From the NCBI GenBank assembly GCA_003513015.1, contig DOTA01000392.1:4510-14634 (forward strand): 10,125 nucleotides of DNA. Direction: 5' to 3'. A program made the position numbers and the translations under genes. Origin of the DNA: Chloroflexota bacterium (GTDB lineage: Bacteria; Chloroflexota; Anaerolineae; Anaerolineales; UBA11858). This document shows, one piece after another, positions 7,496 through 9,945 of this stretch. Positions within the stretch are counted from its first letter, which is position 1. Every line of letters starts with the position of its first letter. The notes below the pieces were generated by a model that worked only from the letters and a program-made list of their open reading frames with translations, did not search any database and was not told the origin of the DNA.

Positions 7496-8809
7496 CTATC
7501 CGATGGCGGCTCGGACGGTTTCATAATCCGCGGGCAACTCCAGCGGCGGGTTGGCGTAGCGTTCGGCGACCTCGGCCAACGCCCGGTTGTGATAATCGAC
7601 TTTGAAGCGCGAAAACTTGAGTCCATGCGCCGTGGAGATCACCACCACGCGCTCGCTTTCACGGATCACGCCTTTGGCGCGCAGTTTTTCCAGCGCGGCC
7701 AGCGCCACGCCTGTGTGCGGGCAAGCATAGAGGCCGGTTTGGTCGGCCTGCACCGCGGCGTTGGCGAGTTCATCTTCCGTGGCCTGTTCCACCACGCCAT
7801 CGAAGGCTTGCAGCGCCTTCACCGCCCGCTCATAGCTGACCGGATCACCAATCTGAATCGCCGAGGCCAGGGTTTTCCCAGCCTGTACCGGCTCCAACGC
7901 GTCAAAACCACGCTGGTAGCTGTTATAAAGGGGCGCAGCCTGCGCGGCCTGGGCGGCCACCAAGCGCGGCAAACGTTTAATCAGGCCCAGTTCCTTCATC
8001 ATCAACAAACCTTTGCCCAGGGCGCTGATATTACCCAAATTCCCGGAGGGGATCACAATCCAATCGGGGACTTGCCAATCCAATTGTTGGATGATCTCGA
8101 TACCCACGGTTTTCTGCCCCTCCATGCGCAATGAGTTCATCGAGTTGGCAAGATAAATCTCAGGCTCTTGCGTGAGTTGCTGCACGATGCGCATACAACC
8201 GTCAAAATCGGTATCCAGCGAAAGCACCTTGGCCCCATTACTGATCGGCTGAATCAACTGCTCGATGCTCACCTTGCCTTTGGGCAGCAGTACAATCGCC
8301 GGGATTCCGGCACTCGCGGCGTAGGCGGCGAGTGCTGCCGAAGTATCGCCTGTGGAAGCGCAAGCCACAGCTTTGATTGGCGCGCCTTCGGCGATCATCT
8401 GCTTAACTGCCGAAACCAGTACGGTCATGCCCAAATCCTTGAACGATCCCGTATGGCTGTTGCCGCACAACTTTACCCACAAATCCGGTACGCCCAACTT
8501 CACCCCCAACGCCCTCGCCCGAAACAAATTGGAATGCCCCTCATACATCGAAACTACGTTTTTCGGCGCAATCTGTGGGGCGACCCACTCCATTTTGCCC
8601 CACACGCCGCTGCCGTAAGGCCATTCCGTAGTACGGGTACGCGCCTCAAACAGCGCCCGCCACTCTGCCCCACTGCGCGCCTGCAGCGGTTCCAAATCAT
8701 GCGCCACATCCAACAGGCCACCGCAATCCTCGCAGCGGTAAACCACCTCAAAAATCGAGTAACGCCGCCCGCAGCCCCGCACACATTCGTACCAACTGTT
8801 ATAAGCCAT
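7496..8809 (-). CDS. thrC: Threonine synthase (PLP-dependent)
   Basis: A 437-residue enzyme converting O-phospho-L-homoserine to L-threonine and phosphate, the last step of threonine synthesis. An N-terminal zinc-ribbon-like segment has four cysteines (C9, C13, C26, C29). The PLP lysine is K124 in [28 protein letters not shown] is the substrate/PLP loop and [11 protein letters not shown] the phosphate-binding glycine-rich loop. Length and order fit the fold-type II threonine synthases. The ATG at 8809 shares its A with the TGA stop of the upstream HAD gene; a GTG at 8812 would add one residue. GGGGG lies just upstream. The tight overlap implies coupled translation with the HAD protein. The gene ends six bases before a strong terminator. 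Other fold-type II enzymes such as cysteate synthase are less likely alternatives. Confidence 0.93.
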
Positions 8810-9945
8810 CACACCCCCACTACATCCGTTTCCATCCGATGAATGGGAAGGAAACCCTGACTGGCTAACGCGGCCGAGGGGATGGAGGCCTCATCAGGTT
8901 TATCGGATAACCCAAAAAGTAACGCGCCCCTTAAGCGCCAGTCGAGGGCACATTCCCGGACCTCTTGGGTGATCACGATTTCCTGAGCTAGGAGGTTCAC
9001 CACAGGGGATTCCGCGTCCATCTGCCCCAGACGGGCAACCATTTCCCGGTATTCATTGGCTCGAAAAGCCTTAAACGGGGTGGGGTCGCCCGCGCGGGTG
9101 CGAGCGTACACATCCCGATGAATTTCGCGCACCCCCGCGGGGAGTTGTGCGGCTTGTCGTTCCACCTCGCTTAAAAGTTGATCGAAGCGGAACAAGCGTC
9201 CCGCGCGGATTTCCTCGACCAGTTGATCTTGCGCATACAACCCCGCGCTGATCATCAAACACAGATACACCAGATAATCCTGGTTGTCGGTGGTAAAGGG
9301 GTGAAATTCGGGTTGATTCAACAAAGTGTAAGCCTTTTGAAAGGCGGTGGCGTTAAAATCATCCCCCACCAGGGCACGCACGGTGGTAAATGCCGCATCC
9401 ACACGAGCCTGATCGATGACCTGATCATTGCGGCCGCGCGCCCCAATGCAGGTTTTATCGAGATCGAGGATGATGGCGGTATGCTCATCAATATTTATCG
9501 CGTGTTCCGCCAACTGGGCATTGAAATTACGCAGCAATTCCCAACGATTTGCATAGACCACCAATCGATTCGCTTCCACCGGAAGGATTTCATGGTAAGT
9601 TGGCTCATCGGGTTTCTCCGCGCAGATGAAAGCGACTCCCGGCCAATCGCCCGCCGCGCAAATATTGGAAAAGGCCGTAGCATCGTTCAGGCGCGTATCG
9701 CCAATGAAAATTAGAGAATTGATTTCAGCATTGGGAACATCCAGGGCGCGTGCCCTCCGCAATAACTGACTGACCAGTTGAGCATACTCCGGGGCAGTTT
9801 TGCGGGGTACCCCTTGGCCGGGCATCCGCAGGGAGGCGCGCAGTTCCGTGACCCCCGGCAAGCGCGTATCAATAGGTTTCAACCCGCGGTAGGCGATGCT
9901 ATCGCCCAAAAATTCACTGACAGTCGATCGTCCGTATCGTTTCAT
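8809..9945 (-). CDS. HAD-superfamily phosphatase-like protein with apparently permuted motif order
   Basis: A 378-residue cytoplasmic protein whose exact family I do not recognise. Three strong haloacid dehalogenase-type motifs are visible: FIGDTRLND (residues 81-88, like motif IV GDxxxD), ILDLDKT (159-165, like motif I DxDxT with candidate nucleophile D161 and acid/base D163) and [12 protein letters not shown] (343-354, like motif II with S347). A candidate motif III lysine is K49, in RKTAPEY, followed by a helix that leads into the motif IV strand. The order III-IV-I-cap-II differs from the usual I-II-III-IV. Residues about 175-335 are mainly helical and could be a C1-type cap, in its expected place between motifs I and II. 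I chose the ATG at 9945; a GTG at 9963 would add six residues. The gene overlaps thrC by one base. A small-molecule phosphatase role is inferred and the substrate is unknown. Confidence 0.65.

What the first reader, a model, noticed from the sequence alone, without database searches (positions are those of the whole stretch)
8809..9945. Possible circularly permuted HAD phosphatase coupled to threonine synthase
Seen: motif IV-like FIGDTRLND precedes motif I-like ILDLDKT, and motif II-like [10 protein letters not shown] lies near the C-terminus. The N-terminal stretch from K49 through the helix to GDTRLND reads like the motif III-IV segment of phosphoglycolate-type phosphatases, followed by a strand GVAFI. 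Known: HAD enzymes normally have order I-II-III-IV with a C1 cap between I and II. Inference: the chain was cut between motifs II and III and rejoined, giving III-IV-I-cap-II. A permuted active site in a small-molecule phosphatase would be unusual.
Basis: partly seen in the sequence, partly recalled or inferred. Interest (0 to 1): 0.72.

Follow-up and report, generated by a model that had tools for sequence, protein, structure and literature searches.

The report
Rearranged phosphate-transfer enzyme for making threonine
A common but unnamed bacterial protein looks like a well-known phosphate-handling enzyme whose chain has been cut and rejoined in a different order, and it may do a step of threonine production for which its owners have no other clear enzyme.

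Summary
The gene (window 8809-9945, minus, 378 aa) belongs to a large unnamed family without a Pfam or NCBIfam assignment. The six HAD catalytic residues are almost invariant in 409 sequences, in the order K49, D83/D88 (III-IV), D161/D163 (I), large helical cap, S347 (II). Three lines support a circular permutation broken between strand 3 and motif III: the N-terminal part matches the HAD motif IV segment; the C-terminal fragment, folded alone, superposes weakly on the first 130-150 residues of capped HADs; the motif I strand coevolves with the motif II and IV strands. Against: reordering the profile gained nothing; no order-independent superposition was possible.

The gene sits with aspartokinase, aspartate-semialdehyde dehydrogenase and threonine synthase genes. 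It is in 29 of 400 genomes of its phylum, never with homoserine kinase thrB (287 genomes). Best explanation: it makes O-phosphohomoserine by phosphoaspartyl transfer, replacing ThrB, as the HAD enzyme ThrH can. Activity and donor are untested. Genomes judged to be Chloroflexales also carry a kinase distantly like type-II homoserine kinase, a rival there.

The parts
8809..9945 (-). Gene of the permuted HAD-like protein, 378 aa
9799..9801 (-). K49, proposed motif III lysine (PRK)
   Evidence: 408 of 409, one gap; role assigned by position, outside the confident profile alignment
9682..9699 (-). D83 to D88 of GDTRLND, motif IV metal-binding acids
   Evidence: D83 and D88 409 of 409; profile match of residues 61-95 to the HAD motif IV segment
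9451..9465 (-). D161 to T165, motif I; D161 the expected nucleophile, D163 the expected acid/base
   Evidence: D161 407, D163 409, T165 408 of 409
8932..9426 (-). Large helical region taken as cap, about residues 174-338 (its last helix precedes strand 2)
   Evidence: DSSP on the model; fragment model
8890..8919 (-). Residues 343-352, end of strand 2 and motif II (LFGLS347DKPDE)
   Evidence: S347 409 of 409; strand 342-346
7496..8809 (-). Threonine synthase, long form; its ATG overlaps the stop of the HAD-like gene
   Evidence: TIGR00260 221.8 bits, cut-off 167.1; PALP; overlap
10109..10125 (-). 3' part of the upstream aspartate-semialdehyde dehydrogenase gene, which runs out of the window
   Evidence: tblastn on the wider contig, L066 10109-10795

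Best explanation
It is a HAD-fold enzyme whose chain is circularly permuted: the usual C-terminal part (motif III lysine, helix, motif IV strand GDTxxxD, strand 5) comes first, followed by motif I, a very large C1-type cap, motif II and strand 3. The six residues meet in one Mg2+ site. It makes O-phosphohomoserine for threonine synthase: D161 takes phosphate from a donor as phosphoaspartate, D163 acts as acid/base, and the phosphate passes to homoserine bound by invariant cap residues. It thereby replaces homoserine kinase in Chloroflexota that lack ThrB, and perhaps in Acidobacteriota, where the gene follows ask-asd but thrB was not sought. Shown: invariance and order of the residues, gene context, mutual exclusion with thrB. 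Supported by prediction: permuted fold. Inferred: converging site, substrate and product. Guess: donor (phosphoserine as for ThrH, or another phosphometabolite, rather than ATP).
For: Fold: catalytic residues almost invariant. Piece 40-148 matches a HAD_2 profile with residues 61-95 on columns 153-183, the helix after the motif III lysine and motif IV (score 38.8, probability 85%). In a like-for-like control, the best of 14 windows of this family scores 38.5, the best of 110 windows from 8 other families 32.1 (thrB), the other seven families at most 21.0. PF13242, a HAD family, is the commonest weak Pfam hit (29 of 114 members; next 5), at residues ~58-95 in 9 of 10 members looked at. Fragment 149-378 folded alone (pLDDT 91.6): 24 of 50 VIA rows are HADs, 19 of them aligned from the chain start to residue 128-170. 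I158-L343, I158-A341 (strands 1-2) and I81-L160 (4-1) are among the 70 strongest long-range couplings. Function: ask, asd or thrC on 39 of 45 regions; hom also in L010, L070, L079. Family in 29 of 400 genomes, thrB (E <= 1e-20) in 287, overlap 0. Of the 29, none has TIGR00938 or TIGR02535 over cut-off, 29 have homoserine dehydrogenase, 27 have thrC over cut-off and one a contig-edge piece. In 61 relatives, each of the 38 genomes with thrC at >= 198 bits has this gene (9), thrB (28, two also TIGR02535) or TIGR02535 alone (1) (threshold mine, see against). thrB lies beside thrC in 6 of 7 chosen wide regions. Precedent: ThrH (PMC1079889, passages).
Confidence: 0.6

Rival explanations
1. A permuted HAD phosphatase that hydrolyses a phosphoester of the aspartate pathway or repairs a side product, while an unrecognised kinase phosphorylates homoserine.
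For: Most HADs are hydrolases (established knowledge). Some genomes of the phylum have thrC but no match to thrB, TIGR00938, TIGR02535 or this family at the limits used (G106, G241, G310, G206), so unknown homoserine kinases probably exist there.
Against: A helper phosphatase would be expected in some thrB genomes; it is in 0 of 287.
Confidence: 0.22
2. In the Chloroflexales the APH-type kinase is the real homoserine kinase and the HAD-like protein does something else tied to aspartate-semialdehyde dehydrogenase, perhaps in the whole family.
For: APH-type hits in 19 of 20 family-positive f36 genomes; best NCBIfam hit NF003558 homoserine kinase in the two scanned. asd, not thrC, is the neighbour in 4 of 5 f36 regions read.
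Against: The hits are far below cut-off and no ask, asd, hom or thrC lay on the 4 f36 regions around them. The 6 family-positive genomes of the window's own class have no such hit at 1e-10.
Confidence: 0.12
3. The architecture is not a permuted HAD but another Rossmann-like fold with convergent motifs.
For: No full-length HAD match by sequence or by Foldseek; reordering the profile gives no gain.
Against: All six residues almost invariant in HAD-like local settings, motif IV segment match above all control windows, fragment on the first part of HAD chains, strand couplings.
Confidence: 0.08

Closest known systems
ThrH of Pseudomonas aeruginosa (HAD, phosphoserine:homoserine phosphotransferase)
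   Same: HAD chemistry, product O-phosphohomoserine (here inferred); ThrH complements homoserine kinase (PMC1079889, passages)
   Different: Normal motif order and a small protein (recalled); ours is permuted with a ~165-residue cap and matches no NCBIfam model
C1-capped HAD enzymes: beta-phosphoglucomutase, phosphonoacetaldehyde hydrolase, phosphoglycolate phosphatase (PF13419)
   Different: Order III-IV-I-cap-II; no Pfam match over gathering score for the window protein
Homoserine kinase ThrB (TIGR00191, GHMP) and ThrB-alt (TIGR00938, APH fold)
   Same: Proposed product and genomic slot
   Different: No NCBIfam match to either; not found in the same genome as thrB in 400 plus 61 genomes searched, with overlap between the sets
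TIGR02535 / ThrB2, proposed homoserine kinase of the phosphoglycerate-mutase type
   Same: Proposed homoserine phosphorylation replacing ThrB, with a donor such as PEP suggested (PMC7311316 and PMC9026213, passages)
   Different: Different family; over cut-off in 0 of 29 family-positive genomes

Membership tests
HAD superfamily | Motif I DxDx(T/V) after a hydrophobic strand | tested here: met
   D161 407, D163 409, T165 408 of 409; strand 156-161
HAD superfamily | Motif II S/T at the end of a strand | tested here: met
   S347 409 of 409, after strand 342-346
HAD superfamily | Motif III K/R ahead of the helix that leads to motif IV | tested here: met
   K49 408 of 409, one gap, just before helix 52-69; only a low-confidence alignment places it opposite the HAD lysine
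HAD superfamily | Motif IV (G)DxxxD or similar after a strand | tested here: met
   D83 and D88 invariant, after strand 77-82; profile match
HAD superfamily | Linear order I-II-III-IV | tested here: not met
   Order is III-IV-I-II; so not an ordinary linear HAD but, as proposed, a circular permutant
HAD superfamily | Sheet with strand 1 between strands 2 and 4, residues in one site | tested here: inconclusive
   Couplings of strands 1-2 (p 0.0017) and 1-4 (p 0.020) fit, 2-3 and 4-5 not significant, 36 blocks tested; fragment fits HAD with low Z; full superposition not run
HAD superfamily | Curated Pfam match over gathering score | tested here: not met
   None for the window protein; PF13242 in 29 of 114 members at E up to 1, in 9 of 10 looked at singly and there always below the 22-bit cut-off
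ThrH-like phosphoserine:homoserine phosphotransferase | Transfer of phosphate from phosphoserine to homoserine | not testable with these tools
   needs an assay
ThrB / ThrB-alt / TIGR02535 | NCBIfam match over cut-off | tested here: not met
   0 families in NCBIfam

The most novel reading that the evidence does not exclude
A previously unrecognised, circularly permuted HAD family is the homoserine-phosphorylating enzyme of many Chloroflexota and perhaps some Acidobacteriota, working by phosphoaspartyl transfer from a donor other than ATP. It would be a new solution, in a new chain topology, to the recognised 'missing homoserine kinase' problem, present in Chloroflexus.
Probability: 0.5. Interest if true: 0.85.

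Novelty: new variant of a known kind. Interest (0 to 1): 0.74.

Why it matters
Homoserine kinase is one of the commonest gaps in amino-acid pathway prediction: 29 of 148 diverse prokaryotes that grow without amino acids seem to lack ThrB, and 15 of those carry the putative TIGR02535 replacement (PMC7311316, passages). This family gives a directly testable candidate for one group of genomes without ThrB, probably including Chloroflexus. It would also be a natural HAD active site rebuilt from a permuted chain, useful for asking how enzyme folds tolerate rewiring and how a phosphatase fold becomes a transferase.

Tried and rejected
Sequence searches gave nothing: Pfam, NCBIfam and PDB with the single protein, PDB with profiles A4 and A3.

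Rotation test: the family profile in its native order and at 37 rotations, and three core pieces in all 6 orders. Best scores against HAD were about 26-28 whatever the order, lower (18.5-24.4) only for the cuts at 70-90 that fall in or next to the motif IV segment, which alone carries the score. This neither supports nor excludes the permutation.

A ThrH-like double role covering a missing serB could not be tested: serB (TIGR00338) is over cut-off in 1 of 29 family-positive and 0 of 29 chosen thrB-positive genomes.

An ordinary linear HAD in the C-terminal part was rejected: the GDD at 194-196 is not conserved.

Literature searches for a permuted HAD (15 of 160, 2 of 2 and 12 of 125 papers listed) and for a homoserine kinase of Chloroflexi, Chloroflexus or Anaerolineae (1 of 1, 15 of 172, 0 and 12 of 111 listed) showed no report of this family. 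Only that library was searched, long lists were seen in part, and only listings and the passages or sections named were read.

Full report
What is there. Window 8809-9945 (minus) encodes a 378-aa protein whose TGA stop overlaps the ATG of threonine synthase; that neighbour is TIGR00260 at 221.8 bits. Upstream, just beyond the window, lies aspartate-semialdehyde dehydrogenase (L066). The protein has no NCBIfam match, no Pfam match better than E 0.11 and no PDB sequence match better than 0.21. It belongs to a large family: 3200 of the 7998 candidates scored have E <= 1e-3, 2733 of 7999 for a second branch and 160 of 7996 for a third. The names shown for some of the 120 listed hits of each search say 'hypothetical protein' or begin 'Uncharacteri', mostly from Anaerolineae and Chloroflexi, in the third search also Chloroflexus, Oscillochloris, Viridilinea and one Gracilibacteria record. 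Two of 25 loci from named genomes are titled Acidobacteria or Acidobacteriota. The genomes searched bear handles only; that the phylum is Chloroflexota and that family f36 is Chloroflexales is judged from these names.

Catalytic residues. In 409 sequences (411 collected, 2 dropped for gaps) K49 is kept in 408, D83 in 409, D88 in 409, D161 in 407, D163 in 409, T165 in 408 and S347 in 409. Further residues kept in 290 to 292 of 292 are R20, R48, R134, W135, R172, D220, N221, Q222, D223, R295, E298, D348, E352 and H369, more than a bare phosphatase site needs.

Context. Of 25 loci from named genomes, 21 carry ask, asd or thrC; the exceptions are L012, L014, L023 and L025, the last two with truncated genes. 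Of 20 wider regions, chosen from the 37 family-positive genomes known, 18 do; the exceptions are L072 and L081. Orders include hom-ask-asd-THIS-thrC (L010, L070) and ask-hom-asd-THIS (L079). The L010 neighbours were checked by Pfam, and ask and asd also by NCBIfam; the others were named by tblastn to them. In relatives with thrB, thrB lies next to a short-form thrC in 6 of 7 chosen wide regions (L087, L088, L090-L093; not L086, where it sits at a contig end).

Occurrence. In 400 genomes drawn evenly from the phylum the family is in 29 (E <= 1e-10) and thrB (TIGR00191, E <= 1e-20) in 287, 269 of them over cut-off; overlap 0 (Fisher p 6.6e-18). The genomes are related and 20 of the 29 are one family, f36, so this p-value overstates the evidence. 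Switches occur inside families, however: f1, f11 and f15 contain both kinds, and genus g5 has this gene in G004 and G011 and thrB in G009, G015 and G017. Among the 29: homoserine dehydrogenase 29; thrC over cut-off 27, one contig-edge piece (G437), none in G082; TIGR00938 over cut-off 0, sub-threshold APH-type hits in 22; TIGR02535 over cut-off 0, sub-threshold hits in 2. In 61 relatives I counted thrB at >= 156 bits (31 genomes; weaker GHMP hits occur in nearly all), this family in 9 and overlap 0 (p 8.3e-4). Taking thrC at >= 198 bits, a threshold chosen after seeing the scores, all 38 such genomes have a candidate: 9 this family, 26 thrB, 2 thrB plus TIGR02535, 1 TIGR02535 alone; the 20 genomes with none of the three have no thrC that strong. 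By TIGR00260's own cut-off, however, 16 of those 20 do have a match, at 168-188 bits, a score class that also occurs as second copies in genomes with a strong thrC. So this correlation depends on the threshold, and on gene adjacency in draft genomes.

Mechanism. ThrH, a HAD enzyme, complements homoserine kinase by moving phosphate from phosphoserine to homoserine (PMC1079889, passages). The same chemistry with D161 as nucleophile fits the site here. The donor is unknown; that it is not ATP is inferred from HAD chemistry. The single-contig chromosome of G174 (5,258,541 bp) matches my memory of the size of Chloroflexus aurantiacus J-10-fl; the genome paper gives 5.3 Mb and says the organism uses ammonia as sole nitrogen source (PMC3150298, section 22 read), so it should make threonine.

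Weak point in f36. These genomes carry an APH-type protein whose best NCBIfam hit is homoserine kinase NF003558, 110 and 121 bits in the two scanned (cut-off 271). No threonine-pathway gene of the set tested lay on the 4 f36 regions read around it. G299 has it and thrC without this family. The 6 family-positive genomes of the window's own class have no such hit at 1e-10.

Known or new. GapMind reports 29 of 148 organisms seeming to lack ThrB and 15 of these having TIGR02535 (PMC7311316, passages); Price et al. write that novel homoserine kinases remain to be discovered (PMC5764234, section 17 read); ThrB2 was proposed from the same kind of evidence (PMC9026213, passages). None of the passages read mentions this family. 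I rate it a new variant of a known kind: HAD chemistry in a permuted chain with a proposed new role.

Noticed in passing
window 2295-7272, minus strand: Downstream of threonine synthase lies what reads like a phosphate ABC transporter cluster (PstS-, PstC-, PstA-, PstB-like) and a second substrate-binding-like protein; read from the sequence only.
   Followed up: no
window 9955-10060: The gap between asd and this gene is full of short repeated and palindrome-like ATTCGCG / CACGAAT words; read by eye.
   Followed up: no
L094 4401-5402 (-), L096 3791-4765 (+): APH-type kinase of f36 genomes with homoserine kinase as best but sub-threshold NCBIfam hit; a candidate in its own right.
   Followed up: partly
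L089 (G021:C50) 4805-7734: thrC, then the proposed homoserine kinase TIGR02535, then a short stretch matching only part of thrB, as if thrB had decayed beside its replacement; G035 and G048 carry full thrB followed by TIGR02535.
   Followed up: partly
G106, G241, G310 (f44) and G206 (f75): Genomes with strong thrC but no match to thrB, TIGR02535, TIGR00938 or this family at the limits used: another missing homoserine kinase.
   Followed up: no
L003, L005-L008, L016, just downstream of this gene: One or two small YdjM-like membrane proteins follow the gene, before thrC where thrC is present (not in L007); one in L007 and one in L008 were confirmed by Pfam, the others by resemblance.
   Followed up: partly
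L013, L014: A dCTP-deaminase-like gene lies directly upstream of the family gene in place of asd (L013 by Pfam; L014 by resemblance).
   Followed up: no
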